Of a stretch of 64,000 nucleotides of DNA, positions 45,356 to 57,294 are shown piece after piece. Every line of letters begins with the position of its first letter. The first letter of the stretch is position 1. The DNA is from Candidatus Gastranaerophilales bacterium. Its GTDB lineage: Bacteria; Cyanobacteriota; Vampirovibrionia; Gastranaerophilales; JANQFW01. The notes under the pieces are model-generated. The model was not told the origin of the DNA. It made no database searches and was given only the letters and a program-made list of their open reading frames with translations. Location of the stretch: NCBI GenBank assembly GCA_028277625.1, contig JANQFW010000038.1, positions 1-64,000 on the forward strand. The letters are read 5' to 3'. The translations under genes were made by a program, and so were the position numbers.

Positions 45356-46651
45356 TTATTTTTGAGCCGGTTTATCTCTTAATTGATTAGCAAATCTTCT
45401 GGCTAAAGAGTCAAAGTCGCTGCCTCTTCTTGCTTCTATTTCTACTTCCAGGTATTCTCCATTATTATTCTTAAAAAGTATATCACCTGCTTTTATAGTT
45501 TTGTCTATACTTTTTTCACGTATTACTAATTCTTTATTAGTTGTGTTTTCCCAGAAATAATTTTGTGGGTGTCCCTCTTGATCAATGATAGATGCTACAT
45601 TGAGTCCTCCTGGATTATTAAATATTTTGACTCCATCCTTATATTCAGTTGTTGTAACACCAGTGTTGGTATGTGTTGTTTTTTTTATTACATCTGATCC
45701 TTTAGGGTATGTTGTTGTTATACTGCCATCAGGATATTTAGATACCTTGGTTCCATTTTTATAATCAGTTATTGTAATACCAGTATTGGCATATGTTGTC
45801 ATTTTTATTTTGTCTGATTCTTTAGGGTATCTTATTATTTTGTTGCCATCGTTTTTTAAAAGTTCAGTATGGCCATCTTTATATTCTGTACGGGTGTCAC
45901 CAGAAGTTTTATAAAAAGTCTGTTTTGATATAGGAGAGAGATTAGGGTGCATTACTACCCAGCTACTTGGGTAGTCTATGAACATGCTACCGTCAGAATA
46001 TTTGTTATATGGGTCGCCATCTCTTGTTTTTCCTGTTTCTGTTACGATAGGTTCTACTGTGACAGGCATTAGGCCTTGCCCTTGTATAGGTTGTGTATAA
46101 TCAGTCATGAAAGGCCCTTGTGTTGGAGCATGATAGCCGGGCATAATATAAGGAGTTGGGGCAGGCTGCTGCGATAAGCCGGCTGTTTGAGATTTTGCTT
46201 GTCGTTCTCTTTTGTGATCATAAGCAAGTTGTTTTGCTAAGTCGCTGAATTTGCCGGTTGTTTTTACAAAATTGTTTTCACCACATTGATAAACTATTTC
46301 TCCCGGCTTAATACCTCCTGGAATATTAGTAAAATAGCCGTCAAGTCCAGAGGGTTTGTTTGGATCTGCGCTTTTTGATCTCCCCCATAGAAAAGCTTCT
46401 GTTTCGCCATTAGGAGTATAATAGAAAGCTGTTTTTACTCCATCTTCTTTATTTTTATATGTATGAAAGCCGGTCTTTGTGTATACTTTTTCTTTGTCTC
46501 CATTTGGGTATGTTATTCTTTCAATATGTTCTTGGGGTGATTCTTGAGGTTGTGAGGGGCCAGCAAGATTAAAATCATTGTCATTAGAGTTTGGTCTGCC
46601 GGTACCTACTTTAAAATTTATTGCATTTGGTATACTATAGCCTTTTATCAT
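45356..46651 (-). CDS. FKG-type repeat protein, third gene of tandem set
   Basis: 431 aa. The N-terminus MIKGYSIPNAINFK is shared with the next two genes. Residues about 90-155 and 365-425 each carry a module (FLWGRS..., then GEIVYQCGENNFVKT; and FWENTTNKELVIREK, GDILFKNNNGEYLEVE, FDSLARRF). Between are tandem repeats of the type YPKGSDVIKKTTHTNTGVTT with EYKDG, an antiparallel beta pattern like bacterial MORN or YD-type sheets. A Pro/Gln-rich linker (GLSQQPAPTPYIMPGYHAPT) lies near 160-185. Function unknown. Confidence 0.7.
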   Translation of the reverse strand: MIKGYSIPNAINFKVGTGRPNSNDNDFNLAGPSQPQESPQEHIERITYPNGDKEKVYTKTGFHTYKNKEDGVKTAFYYTPNGETEAFLWGRSKSADPNKPSGLDGYFTNIPGGIKPGEIVYQCGENNFVKTTGKFSDLAKQLAYDHKRERQAKSQTAGLSQQPAPTPYIMPGYHAPTQGPFMTDYTQPIQGQGLMPVTVEPIVTETGKTRDGDPYNKYSDGSMFIDYPSSWVVMHPNLSPISKQTFYKTSGDTRTEYKDGHTELLKNDGNKIIRYPKESDKIKMTTYANTGITITDYKNGTKVSKYPDGSITTTYPKGSDVIKKTTHTNTGVTTTEYKDGVKIFNNPGGLNVASIIDQEGHPQNYFWENTTNKELVIREKSIDKTIKAGDILFKNNNGEYLEVEIEARRGSDFDSLARRFANQLRDKPAQK

Positions 46652-46672: not shown

Positions 46673-47095
46673 TCAGAGTTCTTTATAATCAAACGATCCA
46701 TCTGGTTTCATGCTTGCTAGAACTTGAGTGCCATCTTCTCTTGTTATTAAAAAAGCGCTACTGGAAAGTGGTTTTACATTGGCTTTTTTCCCACTAGGAA
46801 AAGTGCAAGTTAAAGATTTGTTAGAGTTTTGAATTAAATCTGCTTTAAGTCCGTCAGGTCTGGAAACTTGAAAAATTCCAGATTGTTCTGCGACGACAGT
46901 AGATCCATCTGAAAAAGTTGTCTTTTTTTCAGATGGTTGCATTAAAGTATTAATTAAATATTCTTTTGAGCTTCTAGCTGTATTTTTATTTATCTCTTGA
47001 GTTAAAGCTTCCTCTTCGGATTTAGATTTGATTGAGCGATTTGAATTTTTTCCTTTGAAGTTGATTGACTTGGGTATGTTATAATTTTTTATCAT
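46673..47095 (-). CDS. Short FKG-type repeat protein, second gene
   Basis: 140 aa. MIKNYNIPKSINFKG heads it; the rest is one run of beta repeats (TTFSDGSTVVAEQSG, VSRPDGLKADL, TFPSGKKANV, REDGTQVLASMKPDGS). It lacks the C-terminal FLW/GDIIF module of its neighbours. It lies 13 bp after the 822-aa gene and 21 bp before the next, so all three are one operon. Confidence 0.65.
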   Translation of the reverse strand: MIKNYNIPKSINFKGKNSNRSIKSKSEEEALTQEINKNTARSSKEYLINTLMQPSEKKTTFSDGSTVVAEQSGIFQVSRPDGLKADLIQNSNKSLTCTFPSGKKANVKPLSSSAFLITREDGTQVLASMKPDGSFDYKEL

Positions 47096-47108: not shown

Positions 47109-49577
47109 CTAGTGTTTGGCTTTTTGCTGTGCTTTATATTGTTTCATAAATATTGGGGCTAAAAAGTTAAAGTCTTTTACATTAAGCTGTTCATTCACCT
47201 CTATAAAGTGACCTTCAGGTGTTTTAAAAATTATAGTACCAGACGCTAGGGGTTCTTTTTTTGAACCAGTTTCATTTAGTAGCAGTAATTTATTTATTTC
47301 CGGTTTCTCTTCTAATTCTGTCCATTTACCGTCTAGTTTTTCCCATAAGAAGTCTTGTTGCTCACCTTTTTTGTTAATGAAAGAAGCTACTTTTAAGCCT
47401 TTATTTTCAGGGGTGGTTATACAAACGTCATTTTTTATAGTTTTATTACAACCATTTTTTTTTATTATTACAACATTATTGCTATTGAAGTAGTCTAAAG
47501 TTTCTTGTACATCATAATCATAAGGATATTTTGTTCGGACACAATTCTGCTTACTGTTATCTTTAGTGAATAAAGTTTTAAGCTTTCCGTTTTTGTAGTT
47601 TGTTTCGGCATATTTTTTGCCTTTGGTTGCTTCTTTATAGCCATAGATTATTGTATGGACTTTGTCAGTATCTTTGGTGTTTGGATATATTATTTTAGTA
47701 TTAAAGCTTCTTAAAGAAAAAGTTTCTATACTATTATTTTTATAAGTAGTTTTTATCGTTTTGTCTTTTATGTTTATAGTCGTATTTGTTTTATTTGAGT
47801 CTTTTGGATAAGTAATTTCAATATTTTCGTTATCATTTAATAAAACAACAGAAATGCCATTATCATAAAGTTCTGTTGTTTTATTTTTGTCACTTGTTTT
47901 TTTTATAACAGACGCAGATGGTATGCTTATATTATTATTTTGATCTTTTTTTATAGTTATACCATCAGGAAAGTTTATTGCCAGATTTCCAGATTCATTA
48001 ACTTTGTACTTAGTTTGATTATCAATATCAGATAAGAAGGAACTGGTACTAGCTTTGCATTGAGCAAAAATTTCTGTAAATCTATCTTCTTGAAGAGGAG
48101 GATATTTCTCTTGAACTTTAGAACGAAGAATATTAGCAAATTTGTCCTTATACTTTTTTGCAATATCTGCAAAGTCGCCTTTATCATTAACTTTTGTGTA
48201 TTCGATATTAGATGGTGTAAAAATTATATCGCCTTTTTTAAAAGGAATTTTAAATCCGTCTTTATCGTCTTTAAGGAATGTGTAATAGTTAGAGTCTAGA
48301 TCTGTCCATTCGTCACTTAGCTTTTTCCATAAATAAATCTTTTTTTTGCCCTTTAAGTCTTTAGTCAAGGCTACGCATAGATGGTCTTCAGGGGTTTCTC
48401 TTATTGTAAGACCACTTTTATAAAAGCGAAGAAAAGAGTTGCCTGTAAGGTACTTTACTGTTTCGTTTATTTCATATTCTTTTGGGAATTGAGTTCTAAT
48501 ATAAAAAACTTTGCCTGTATTAGCATCATTAAAAGTTGTTTTTATAAATCCATTTTTAAATTTTGTCATGAAAGAGCCGGTGTTAAAAAAATCTATTGTT
48601 TCTTTTATTTTTGATTTGTTTGGATATACAGTTTTAATACTATTCTTATTTTTATCTTCATTATTATTAAATAAAGAACTTTTCTCTCCATTTTTATAAT
48701 AAACGACAAGACTTTTGTTATCTAAATAGTATACTGTTTTTTCTTCTTTTATATCAGGGGTATCAGGATATACTGTTTGAATACTTTTGTCCTTATTGAA
48801 AAAGCTTTTTATTGTTCCATTAGGGTAAGTTATTCTTATGTCACCGCTGTTTCCGTATATTAGAGTGCTTTTTGCACCATCTTTGATACCAATGTTATTA
48901 TGACCTTTAAGAAATAGTTTTTCAGTGAGGCCATTTTTGTATGAGGTTACAATACTACCCTCATCATATATTAAAGTCTCATCTATTTCAGAATCTTTAG
49001 GGTATTTGATTTTAGTCTCATATGGATGTGTTTTATTTATAATTTTTAAGGTTTCATCATCATAAAGTACATATGCCTGTGTTTTATCATCAATGGCTTG
49101 AGAAATATTTTTATTATATAAGTTTATTTCATTCTGTGCATGTTTTTCTAAAATTTCTCCGTTAGGAAAGCGTACTAATATATTTCCTATTTCATCAAGT
49201 TTATATAAGGCATGTTTAGGAACTTCTGAGAAGAGCGCTACACTATCTGTTTGATGTTTGAGCATTTCATTTAAGCCCGGAATAAAGTATTCATTCTCTA
49301 AGTCAGGTAAATCAGGGTATAATGAGTGTAAAGCTGGATTTGGAGAAGTTGGGGAAAGAGGGGGGGGGGCTAGTAGAAACTGTTTAGCTTCTGGGTTTAA
49401 AGGTGTCTCCAGAAAAGCTGGTCGGCCCGGAAGTGGAGGAAATGTTTTTGAGGATTCTGCTGTATCACTTGGCTGTCTTGAATTTTGCTGTCCAGGCACA
49501 GCCCCTCTAGCTTCCGGATTTACTCCATTAGTGCCCTTGAATTTTATAATTTGGGGTCTATTATAGCTTTTTATCAT
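47109..49577 (-). CDS. Large FKG-type repeat protein with a homopolymer tract
   Basis: 822 aa. MIKSYNRPQIIKFKG starts it; a Pro-rich linker (about 45-85) includes APPPLSP encoded by a C10 run. Then come two homologous halves (about 115-485 and 515-820): each has LYKLDEIGN-like start, repeats of YP-(K/N)-x-ETVYY/NTTI and a C-terminal module (IYLWKKLSDEWTDLD / FLWEKLDGKWTEL, then GDIIF / GTIIF, then FADIAKKY / FNFLAPIF). No signal peptide or TM helix is seen. It may be exported by an unrecognised route. Confidence 0.7.
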   Translation of the reverse strand: MIKSYNRPQIIKFKGTNGVNPEARGAVPGQQNSRQPSDTAESSKTFPPLPGRPAFLETPLNPEAKQFLLAPPPLSPTSPNPALHSLYPDLPDLENEYFIPGLNEMLKHQTDSVALFSEVPKHALYKLDEIGNILVRFPNGEILEKHAQNEINLYNKNISQAIDDKTQAYVLYDDETLKIINKTHPYETKIKYPKDSEIDETLIYDEGSIVTSYKNGLTEKLFLKGHNNIGIKDGAKSTLIYGNSGDIRITYPNGTIKSFFNKDKSIQTVYPDTPDIKEEKTVYYLDNKSLVVYYKNGEKSSLFNNNEDKNKNSIKTVYPNKSKIKETIDFFNTGSFMTKFKNGFIKTTFNDANTGKVFYIRTQFPKEYEINETVKYLTGNSFLRFYKSGLTIRETPEDHLCVALTKDLKGKKKIYLWKKLSDEWTDLDSNYYTFLKDDKDGFKIPFKKGDIIFTPSNIEYTKVNDKGDFADIAKKYKDKFANILRSKVQEKYPPLQEDRFTEIFAQCKASTSSFLSDIDNQTKYKVNESGNLAINFPDGITIKKDQNNNISIPSASVIKKTSDKNKTTELYDNGISVVLLNDNENIEITYPKDSNKTNTTINIKDKTIKTTYKNNSIETFSLRSFNTKIIYPNTKDTDKVHTIIYGYKEATKGKKYAETNYKNGKLKTLFTKDNSKQNCVRTKYPYDYDVQETLDYFNSNNVVIIKKNGCNKTIKNDVCITTPENKGLKVASFINKKGEQQDFLWEKLDGKWTELEEKPEINKLLLLNETGSKKEPLASGTIIFKTPEGHFIEVNEQLNVKDFNFLAPIFMKQYKAQQKAKH
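49360..49369 (-). repeat. G10/C10 homopolymer tract in coding sequence
   Basis: Ten consecutive G on the plus strand, C10 in the coding strand at codon 70-73 of the 822-aa gene. In DNA of about 30 percent GC this is far longer than chance. Slipped-strand changes would frame-shift the gene. Confidence 0.85.
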
Positions 49578-50129: not shown

Positions 50130-51242
50130 ATGGATCAGGAAATGGAAAATAATAATATCCCTGAAGAAGAAAAGTTTGAAATTGAGTCATTCCTTAAATT
50201 TGCGGTATCTCAGAATATTTCTGACATTCATTTGAGAAAAGATACGCCACCTATGGTAAGAAAAGACGGAACTATTCTTAAGTCTAAATCAGCGCCTTTG
50301 TCAGAAGAAGATATGCAAGATATTTTAGATAAGATTATTCCGCAAAAACTAAAAGCAAAGATGGGCGATGCTTTTGACTTTGATTTTTCTTATGAAATCT
50401 CTGGTGTGTCACGATTTAGGGTTAACTTGCTTCATGATCTTGGTAGTATAGGGTTTGTCTTTAGGGTTGTTCCTTATGTTGTGCCGGCTATGGAAAAATT
50501 AATACTTCCGCCTGTGCTTAAGAAGTTTACAACTTTAAATAATGGATTGATACTTGTAACAGGTCCTACAGGTAGCGGTAAAACAACTACGCTTGCCTCT
50601 ATATTGGATTTTATGAATCAAAACAGCCAAAAGCATATTATAACCCTAGAAGATCCTATCGAATTTATGCACTCTAATAAAAAATGTGTGTTTACTCAGC
50701 GTCAATTAGGGCTTGATACGGATTCTTTTCCTCATGGGCTTAAATATGCCTTAAGGCAAGATCCTGATGTTATTCTAATTGGTGAGATGAGAGATAGAGA
50801 AACAATATCCAGTGCATTAAAAGCTGCAGAGACCGGTCACTTGGTATTTTCTACTTTGCATACAACTGATGCAGTGCAGACTATTAATAGGATTATAAAC
50901 TCTTTTGAACCACATGAAAGAGAGTCTGTAAGACTGCAAGTTGCCTCAACTTTAAGGGGTACTGTTGCTCAAAAACTTGTGAAGCGCAAAGATAAAGGTA
51001 GGGTTCCTGCGACTGAAATACTTGTAGTTACACCCGCAGCAAGAGATTATATAATTAGAGATGAAGTTGATAAAATATACGAGCTTATTCAGGATGGTGA
51101 TTATAGTGGTATGATGAGTATGAACTTATCTTTGTTTAAGCTGGTGAAAGCTGGCTTGATTACTCAGGAGATGGCCTTAGAATCGTCAGATACGCCTAAT
51201 GAAATGGAACAGCTTCTTAAAGGGGCGTTCCATGGGACCTAA
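50130..51242 (+). CDS. pilT: Type IV pilus retraction ATPase PilT
   Basis: Hexameric motor that disassembles pili. N-terminal PAS-like domain, then Walker A GPTGSGKTTTLAS, Asp box TLEDPIEFMH, Walker B DPDVILIGEMRDRET and His box TGHLVFSTLHTTDA. 370 aa. The C-terminus has the PilT-type SMNLSLFKLVKAGLI. No other pil genes are adjacent, so the pilus itself is encoded elsewhere. AGAGG precedes ATG. Confidence 0.95.
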   Translation: MDQEMENNNIPEEEKFEIESFLKFAVSQNISDIHLRKDTPPMVRKDGTILKSKSAPLSEEDMQDILDKIIPQKLKAKMGDAFDFDFSYEISGVSRFRVNLLHDLGSIGFVFRVVPYVVPAMEKLILPPVLKKFTTLNNGLILVTGPTGSGKTTTLASILDFMNQNSQKHIITLEDPIEFMHSNKKCVFTQRQLGLDTDSFPHGLKYALRQDPDVILIGEMRDRETISSALKAAETGHLVFSTLHTTDAVQTINRIINSFEPHERESVRLQVASTLRGTVAQKLVKRKDKGRVPATEILVVTPAARDYIIRDEVDKIYELIQDGDYSGMMSMNLSLFKLVKAGLITQEMALESSDTPNEMEQLLKGAFHGT

Positions 51243-55599: not shown

Positions 55600-56538
55600 A
55601 TGTTTAGTTTTTATTTATCTTGGTTAAGGAAAGAAGAGTTTTTTTATATTATGGTTAAATGTTTAAGTGTTCCAAGTTTATTTATTAAAAAAAGAGATAA
55701 ACAACCAAAACTAATAGAAGGAAAAAAAGATAGACCGGTTGTTGCTATCGTAGATGACTATTCTAGAATAATTCCAAAGTCAAAAGATTTAACTCATGGT
55801 GAATTGGTAGAAAAAACATTGAAAGCAACTTGTCCAACAGTTGATGTCATTAGATTTGATCTTACTAGTGTTAAGATATCTGCGGATTTTGATAAGAAAG
55901 CTGAAAGGGTTAAAATCTCTACAGCTTACGAGTCTCTTGATAATAATAAAATCTCTGCAGCTTTTGATGAGATAGCTGGAATGTTAAAATCAGGAAAAAA
56001 AATTGATGCGGTTAATATCTCTCTAGGCGCCTCTTTAAATCTTTTTCCTCAAAATTTGGAAAAAAATGTATTTAAACTTATGAAAGAAATACTTCTTATA
56101 GAAACAAGCGTTTTTACTAGTTTTTTTAAGCTTAATAAGTCTACTAGAGAAAAATTGAAAAAAGAAATAAAAAAAATAAAAAATAAGAATATTGACTGCC
56201 ATGATTTATTAAATTCATTGGAGAATTTAGCAGCACAAGAAAAGGTAAAAATTTTTGTTTCAGCAGGAAATAAAGGTTGTGGATATATAAATTCCTATTC
56301 ACTTGCTAAGAATGTAATAACTGTAGGCTCCTGTAATGCTATAAGATTTAAAAAAATATATTCATCACCGTTATTGGCAGATCAATATGAACATGGAGTA
56401 TTTAGATTAAAAGACGGAAAAATGTACCCTTTAAGAATTAGATCTAATTTTTACTTGCCACGTCAATGTTTTAAAGGAACATCTCTTTCTACTCCTGTAG
56501 CTGTAGGGAAATATTTGAAAAGTTTGTTCAATAAATAA
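55600..56538 (+). CDS. Small subtilase (S8 peptidase), copy A
   Basis: 312 aa. Catalytic Asp in VAIVDDYS, His in LTHGELVEKTL, oxyanion Asn in VSAGNKGCG and Ser295 in GTSLSTPVAVGKYL are all present. There is no signal peptide and no propeptide, so it may act inside the cell. A Lys-rich helical insert (about 170-205) separates His and Asn. Start is uncertain: ATG at 55600 lacks a ribosome site, and ATG at 55651 (MVKCLSVPSL) has AAGGAAAGAAGAG further upstream. It is paired with copy B, 21 bp on. Confidence 0.8.
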   Translation: MFSFYLSWLRKEEFFYIMVKCLSVPSLFIKKRDKQPKLIEGKKDRPVVAIVDDYSRIIPKSKDLTHGELVEKTLKATCPTVDVIRFDLTSVKISADFDKKAERVKISTAYESLDNNKISAAFDEIAGMLKSGKKIDAVNISLGASLNLFPQNLEKNVFKLMKEILLIETSVFTSFFKLNKSTREKLKKEIKKIKNKNIDCHDLLNSLENLAAQEKVKIFVSAGNKGCGYINSYSLAKNVITVGSCNAIRFKKIYSSPLLADQYEHGVFRLKDGKMYPLRIRSNFYLPRQCFKGTSLSTPVAVGKYLKSLFNK

Positions 56539-56559
56539 AAGAAAGAAAACTTAGTTATT

Positions 56560-57294
56560 ATGCTTAATTTATTTAGTGTTATATCTGACTCACGGTCGGC
56601 TTTTAAACCAAAGGTTGTAATTATTGATGATTTTGTTAATAAAGAAGAGGGGCTCAATCATGGGCAATTAGTAAAAGGATGTTTGCTAGAGACATGTCCA
56701 GAGGCTCAAATAGAAACAATAAATATAGGTAAAACTAAAGCAGGTAGGGCATGTGTTAATACCTTTAAATTAGCAAGGGATTTAAAGGACATAGCTAAAA
56801 GACTAAATGGGGGAGAAAGGATTGATGCTGTAAATTTGTCTATTAGGTCTGACTTTGATGTGCCTGAACAATATACTTCATTTGCGGAAAATCCTTTTGT
56901 TATTAGCCCTGAATTTAAAGAAGAAATAAAAGCAGAAATAGCTGCTAATGTAGCAGAAAAAAAAGCAGAAAAAGAAATTTTTAAAAAGATTAAAGAATTG
57001 GTAAAACTTGGTAAAACAAAGATATTTTTGTCAGCAGGAAGCGATGGACCAGGTAAAGTAAATATTTATTCAACTATTAATGGTGTAACAACTGTAGGCG
57101 CTTGCAATAGCTTGGGTAGAGTAGAAAAATATTCTTCTACTTTGTTTGCTGATACATTTGAAGATGGAATATCAACATTAAGAAAAAAGTCTAAATTTTT
57201 TCGCTTTTTTTCAATTAGTGTTGTTAGGCATGGTGCATCTTTTTCTACGCCAAGGGCATTAGGGAAGTATCTGAAAGCTTTGTATAGGAGATAG
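56560..57294 (+). CDS. Small subtilase (S8 peptidase), copy B with altered oxyanion residue
   Basis: 244 aa. Asp in VIIDDFV, His34 in LNHGQLVKG and Ser227 in HGASFSTPRALGKYL are kept, but the oxyanion Asn of SAGN is Ser (LSAGSDGPG). Activity may be weak or specialised. It shares the closing block S-TP-A-GKYLK-L with copy A, indicating a tandem duplication followed by divergence. It also lacks a signal peptide. A terminator resembling that of secF follows. Confidence 0.75.
   Translation: MLNLFSVISDSRSAFKPKVVIIDDFVNKEEGLNHGQLVKGCLLETCPEAQIETINIGKTKAGRACVNTFKLARDLKDIAKRLNGGERIDAVNLSIRSDFDVPEQYTSFAENPFVISPEFKEEIKAEIAANVAEKKAEKEIFKKIKELVKLGKTKIFLSAGSDGPGKVNIYSTINGVTTVGACNSLGRVEKYSSTLFADTFEDGISTLRKKSKFFRFFSISVVRHGASFSTPRALGKYLKALYRR

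What the first reader, a model, noticed from the sequence alone, without database searches (positions are those of the whole stretch)
49360..49369. C10 homopolymer at codon 70 of the 822-aa FKG protein: possible phase variation
A run of ten C (coding strand) is exceptional at this base composition, and its position early in the first gene of an operon is where slippage switches expression. Poly-C/G tracts of 8-12 are known phase-variable switches in other AT-rich bacteria (Campylobacter, Helicobacter). In this window it is the only such tract. The encoded APPPLSP lies in a Pro-rich linker that tolerates change.
Basis: partly seen in the sequence, partly recalled or inferred. Interest (0 to 1): 0.7.

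Follow-up and report, generated by a model that had tools for sequence, protein, structure and literature searches.

The report
C10 tract, possible gene switch
A run of ten C bases near the start of one gene could turn that gene on or off by copying slips, which is possible but unproven; following it up showed that gut relatives of this bacterium carry up to dozens of pilus-protein genes with just such a switch, mostly in the off position.

Summary
The tract is real: G10 on the + strand, C10 on the coding strand, 49360-49369, codons 70-73 of an intact 822-aa gene. Lengths 8, 9, 11 and 12 end the protein at 87-93 aa. Codon usage alone gives such a run in this linker with probability about 6e-4. 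So it can act as a slippage switch, but selection for switching is not shown. Only the ON length is seen. The two paralogues lack a tract and no other gene has the N-terminal signature. Runs of 8 or more are at chance genome-wide; runs of 10 are in slight excess (3 against 0.08-0.5). MutS and MutL are present.
The organism belongs to Gastranaerophilales (non-photosynthetic gut Cyanobacteria). One family of that order is full of poly-G tracts (8-15 nt), about 30 nt after an ATG and just before a prepilin cleavage motif. Of 155 distinct loci, 30 are in frame and 125 out of frame, all 155 open back to the tract; the reversed-pattern control is zero in every genome. Two sister species differ by one G in an otherwise gap-free 95.5%-identical gene. 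I found no description of this in the open literature searched. The window tract lacks that architecture and is not a proven member.

The parts
49360..49369 (-). C10 homopolymer (coding strand), codons 70-73 GCC CCC CCC CCT
47109..49577 (-). 822-aa gene carrying the tract, frame intact at C10 (ON)
49533..49577 (-). N-terminal signature MIKSYNRPQIIKFKG, shared with the two downstream genes
49290..49532 (-). Pro-rich linker holding the tract (approximate bounds)
49298..49300 (-). stop (TAG) met if the tract is C9 (92-aa product) or C12 (93-aa product)
49312..49314 (-). stop (TGA) met if the tract is C11 (88-aa product) or C8 (87-aa product)
46673..47095 (-). 140-aa FKG paralogue, 13 nt downstream, no tract
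45356..46651 (-). 431-aa FKG paralogue, 21 nt downstream of the 140-aa gene, Tcp10_C-like repeats (E=2.4e-6, below the curated cut-off), no tract
50130..51242 (+). divergent gene upstream (PilT-like ATPase by eye), which makes the 822-aa gene the first of its strand run
   Evidence: family name from reading the sequence, not tested

Best explanation
The C10 run is a slippage-prone tract in a tolerant Pro-rich linker. It makes the 822-aa gene mutable between ON (C10, C7, C13) and OFF (C8, C9, C11, C12), where translation ends 87-93 aa in and the two genes that follow at 13- and 21-nt gaps could lose expression by polarity. Mechanically it works like a contingency locus. Shown: the tract, the frames, the excess over codon-choice chance. 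Inferred: that it changes length in living cells. Not shown: that switching is selected for. I put about 0.4 on a selected switch and about 0.5 on an incidental mutable tract that arose by in-frame slippage or codon drift.
For: Tract and frames. Probability of a run of 10 from synonymous codons in the linker 6e-4, and excess of 10-mers genome-wide. The order contains gene switching by G/C tract length: a same-order sister-species pair with 95.5% identity over 1110 nt whose only gap is G11 against G10, truncating one protein; paralogous prepilins at G9 (OFF) and G10 (ON) in G009; 155 prepilin loci with 30 ON and 125 OFF. Tracts of eight or more mediate switching in Campylobacter jejuni (PMC6321876).
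Against: Only the ON state is seen, in a single assembly. Runs of 8 or more are not enriched in this genome (8 seen, 4.7-9.6 expected). The paralogues and other tract loci do not form a class of switchable genes. Poly-C on the coding strand at nt 209 is unlike the order's poly-G leader switches. MutS1 and MutL are present. No orthologue in the same genus covers the tract.
Confidence: 0.55

Rival explanations
1. Selected contingency locus: the tract is kept because ON/OFF switching of a surface or secreted FKG protein operon is useful.
For: Position in the first gene of the cluster, short OFF products, lineage-restricted protein, and same-order use of G/C switches.
Against: No tract in paralogues, no second state seen, no enrichment of runs of 8 or more, and no sequence evidence that the protein is exposed.
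Confidence: 0.4
2. Chance or neutral: an accidental string of Ala-Pro-Pro-Pro codons, stable in practice because mismatch repair is intact.
For: MutS1 and MutL present; the number of runs of 8 or more matches chance.
Against: Chance per linker about 6e-4 and about 0.1-0.5 runs of 10 expected per genome.
Confidence: 0.3
3. Transcriptional or ribosomal slippage at the tract (phenotypic rather than genetic switching) makes a fixed share of truncated product.
For: Homopolymers of this length can be slippery for RNA polymerase (general knowledge). In one genus of the related family many tracts are G10 and one short of in frame, which frameshifting at the RNA level could rescue.
Against: Not tested. 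The window gene is already in frame, so slippage would only lose product.
Confidence: 0.1
4. Assembly or sequencing error in tract length.
For: Long G runs are hard for short reads (PMC9187656), and this is a draft in 146 contigs.
Against: C10 keeps an 822-aa frame on both sides; any error not a multiple of 3 would have broken it.
Confidence: 0.05

Closest known systems
Campylobacter jejuni poly-G/C phase-variable genes (phasome; PMC6321876)
   Same: AT-rich genome, G/C tract of 8-12 inside the reading frame, predicted ON/OFF by slippage
   Different: There many tracts, tract-length excess and measured switching; here one candidate, no excess of runs of 8 or more, and no measurement
Bifidobacterium breve sortase-pilus G-tract switch (PMC9187656)
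   Same: Gut commensal, G tract in the first gene of a cluster, slippage joins two frames; close parallel to the prepilin tracts found in the related family
   Different: Sortase-dependent pili of a Gram-positive, two loci; the related family has up to dozens of prepilin-type genes per genome; the window gene is not a pilin
Neisseria PilC poly-G switch (from general knowledge; only papers naming it were listed)
   Same: Poly-G near the N-terminus of a pilus-related gene
   Different: PilC is a tip adhesin or assembly protein, not a large family of prepilins

Membership tests
Simple-sequence (homopolymer) contingency locus: the window C10 | G/C tract of 7-8 or more within or upstream of a gene | tested here: met
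   C10 at 49360-49369
Simple-sequence (homopolymer) contingency locus: the window C10 | Changes not a multiple of 3 switch the product off | tested here: met
   87-93 aa products at C8, C9, C11, C12
Simple-sequence (homopolymer) contingency locus: the window C10 | Tract longer than chance and codon usage allow | tested here: met
   6e-4 per linker; genome tail 3 against 0.08-0.48
Simple-sequence (homopolymer) contingency locus: the window C10 | Length differs between strains or within a population | not testable with these tools
   No reads; no orthologue covering the tract in held genomes
Simple-sequence (homopolymer) contingency locus: the window C10 | Several genes of the same class carry tracts in the genome (supporting feature, not strictly required) | tested here: not met
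   FKG paralogues lack tracts; other tracts are intergenic, at a 3' end, or mostly in ordinary glycine codons
Poly-G-switched prepilin of Gastranaerophilales (asked of the window gene) | ATG, about 19-40 nt, G8-15, then FTxAExL prepilin motif in a frame open back to the tract | tested here: not met
   Window gene: C on the coding strand, nt 209, no motif; own genome 0 hits
Poly-G-switched prepilin of Gastranaerophilales (asked of the relatives) | Mixture of in-frame and out-of-frame lengths with otherwise intact genes | tested here: met
   30 ON, 80 one short, 45 one too many, 155/155 open back to the tract
Poly-G-switched prepilin of Gastranaerophilales (asked of the relatives) | Prepilin N-terminal domain | tested here: inconclusive
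   One of three examples over the Pfam N_methyl and TIGR02532 cut-offs; the other two show only sub-threshold pilin matches

The most novel reading that the evidence does not exclude
Gastranaerophilales use G/C-tract slippage as a large contingency system: up to dozens of prepilin genes per genome, mostly OFF in assemblies, plus some other genes. The window's C10 would be a variant of it that switches an FKG repeat-protein operon in a family that lacks the pilin version. The prepilin part alone I hold at about 0.85; the probability given here is for the window tract also being a used switch.
Probability: 0.3. Interest if true: 0.75.

Novelty: new member of a known kind. Interest (0 to 1): 0.55.

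Why it matters
If the window tract switches, an uncharacterised protein operon of a gut cyanobacterial relative is under stochastic control. More important is what following it revealed: in Gastranaerophilales, a gut lineage known almost only from metagenomes, some genomes hold up to about 50 counted prepilin-type loci behind poly-G tracts, most out of frame in the assembly. That would give each cell a different pilus set, would make standard annotation miss or split these genes, and can be tested at once on existing long-read metagenomes.

Tried and rejected
Orthologues of the 822-aa protein: none in 84,980 named species ('own' records may be left out) and only a 29% fragment in the one same-genus genome, so strain comparison failed. 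My first signature pattern was mis-spaced (zero hits) and was corrected. Mismatch-repair loss as the cause of poly-G abundance: rejected, MutS1 and MutL are present in tract-rich genomes and in this one. Conserved glycine codons as the explanation of the relatives' tracts: rejected, since most are out of frame. Structure of the 431-aa paralogue was requested but had not finished. Two Pfam calls failed on wrong coordinates.

Full report
What is there. The + strand has ten G at 49360-49369, so the coding strand has C10. It lies at nt 209-218 of an intact 822-aa gene (47109-49577, -), as GCC CCC CCC CCT = A70-P71-P72-P73. It is the only C/G run above 7 in the window. Two paralogues follow at gaps of 13 and 21 nt (140 and 431 aa). 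The three share MIKxYxxPxxIxFKG, which is found nowhere else in the genome with up to two mismatches. The 431-aa protein has a sub-threshold match to Tcp10_C repeats (E=2.4e-6).

Is it chance? Redrawing synonymous codons from 103 sampled genes gives a run of 10 or more in codons 46-95 in 0.06% of trials. For the genome, codon redraw and Markov models of order 1, 3 and 5 expect 0.08-0.48 runs of 10 or more (3 seen; Poisson P 7e-5 to 0.013), 0.5-2.1 of 9 or more (5 seen; P 2e-4 to 0.07) and 4.7-9.6 of 8 or more (8 seen; P 0.10-0.74). The background sample includes stretches chosen because they hold tracts, so the higher expectations may be inflated. Of the eight runs, three are glycine codons of conserved enzymes by eye; one (G10) is intergenic before a sugar-kinase-like gene; one (C9) lies 47 nt upstream of a Wzc-like gene; one (G10) is at the end of an 84-aa ORF; one (G9) is in frame inside a 309-aa ORF; and one is the window tract.

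What a slip would do. C9 gives 92 aa, C11 88, C8 87 and C12 93. No well-placed internal start is evident; the first in-frame ATG after the tract is codon 105, without a clear ribosome site. Loss of the downstream genes by polarity is inference.

Related genes and strains. The 822-aa protein has no relative in 60 genomes except a 29% fragment in the one same-genus genome, G001, which, like a second partial match, does not cover the linker. G001's own runs of 9 or more include G14 and G10 outside any long ORF and a G9 in frame near a C-terminus. Length variation at the window site is therefore untested.

The order. A contig-length match (431,082 and 136,118) identifies G046 as Ca. Gastranaerophilus phascolarctosicola Zag_221, so the window's order is Gastranaerophilales. 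Counting C9 words in 97 genomes gave 8 in this genome but tens to hundreds in many f2 genomes. In 100 kb of G062, runs of 6-9 are absent while nine runs of 10-12 exist: a bimodal distribution.

Where those tracts sit. In 340 kb sampled from three f2 genomes, 17 of 25 tract entries (two halves of a gap-split tract count separately) are followed by a prepilin-type motif, against 53 of 3400 random positions. An ATG about 28-30 nt upstream is usual. The pattern G8, 0-30 nt, FxxAE[x]L is found in 39 of 97 genomes, with its reversed control at zero everywhere. With an ATG required, 54 of 382 genomes of the class match, all within the order; none of the 96 genomes listed as 'same class' does; the control is again zero; G042 has 52 counts and G046 49 (a few loci count twice when two ATGs fit). 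That scan was incomplete, so exclusivity is not shown.

ON and OFF. In 75 usable loci of that scan 15 are ON and 60 OFF, with OFF products mostly 12-20 aa. A few OFF calls are loci cut by the end of the fetched stretch or in frame but short. Pooling all fetched loci, 155 distinct ones give 30 in frame, 80 one G short and 45 one too many, and all 155 frames are open back to the tract. That fits neither plain coding (all in frame) nor random thirds (P=1.6e-4; loci are related, so this P is optimistic). Both off frames stop within 8 codons in 60% of tract loci against 22% of 41 prepilins without a tract. Direct variation: G012 and G007 carry a radical-SAM-like gene (by eye) 95.5% identical over 1110 nt whose only gap is G11 against G10, truncating the G012 product. 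G009 has two near-identical prepilin leaders with G9 (OFF) and G10 (ON). An acyltransferase-like gene in G012 is OFF at G12. Some G046 tracts are scaffold gaps (GGGnnGGG), as expected if assembly breaks there.

Limits. Tract lengths come from assembly consensus. Many g2 tracts are exactly G10 and one short, so RNA-level frameshifting is a live alternative there. Mismatch repair genes are present. Full-text searches pairing the lineage names with phase variation, homopolymers or pili found no description, and the single-cell genome paper of this order mentions type IV pili genes only; most subscription papers and preprints are not covered.

Verdict. The window tract is a plausible but unproven switch of a known kind (interest about 0.3 on its own). 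The stronger result, outside the window, is a large poly-G prepilin switch repertoire in the related family (about 0.75); the overall score lies between.

Noticed in passing
Relatives G046, G013, G022, G042, G062, G222, G256, G385 and others; e.g. L062:10909-11924, L157:5299-6255, L161:5640-6623, L229:4508-5236: Poly-G tracts (8-15 nt) between an ATG and a prepilin cleavage motif, up to about 50 counted loci per genome, mostly out of frame; control pattern zero in every genome.
   Followed up: yes
L152:5549-5559 (G012) and L155:4668-4677 (G007): Sister-species orthologues, 95.5% identical over 1110 nt, differing in length only at the G tract (11 against 10), truncated against full; radical-SAM-like by eye.
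   Followed up: yes
L151:4933-4944 (G012): G12 puts an acyltransferase-like (hexapeptide-repeat) gene out of frame.
   Followed up: partly
L022:7866-7874 (own genome C61): C9 lying 47 nt upstream of a Wzc-like polysaccharide gene; could act on transcription.
   Followed up: no
L072, L073 (G062): A recurring sequence (SCSTLTLKSDEARELPLGESE...) sits between the G tract and the prepilin motif in several genes, as if an element had inserted there.
   Followed up: no
G088, G090, G092, G094: Genera g32 and g33 show no full MutL match and only a sub-threshold MutS1, yet have few G/C tracts.
   Followed up: no
window 55600-57294: Two adjacent short subtilisin-like ORFs (HGE/HGQ and GTSLSTP/GASFSTP motifs by eye).
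   Followed up: no
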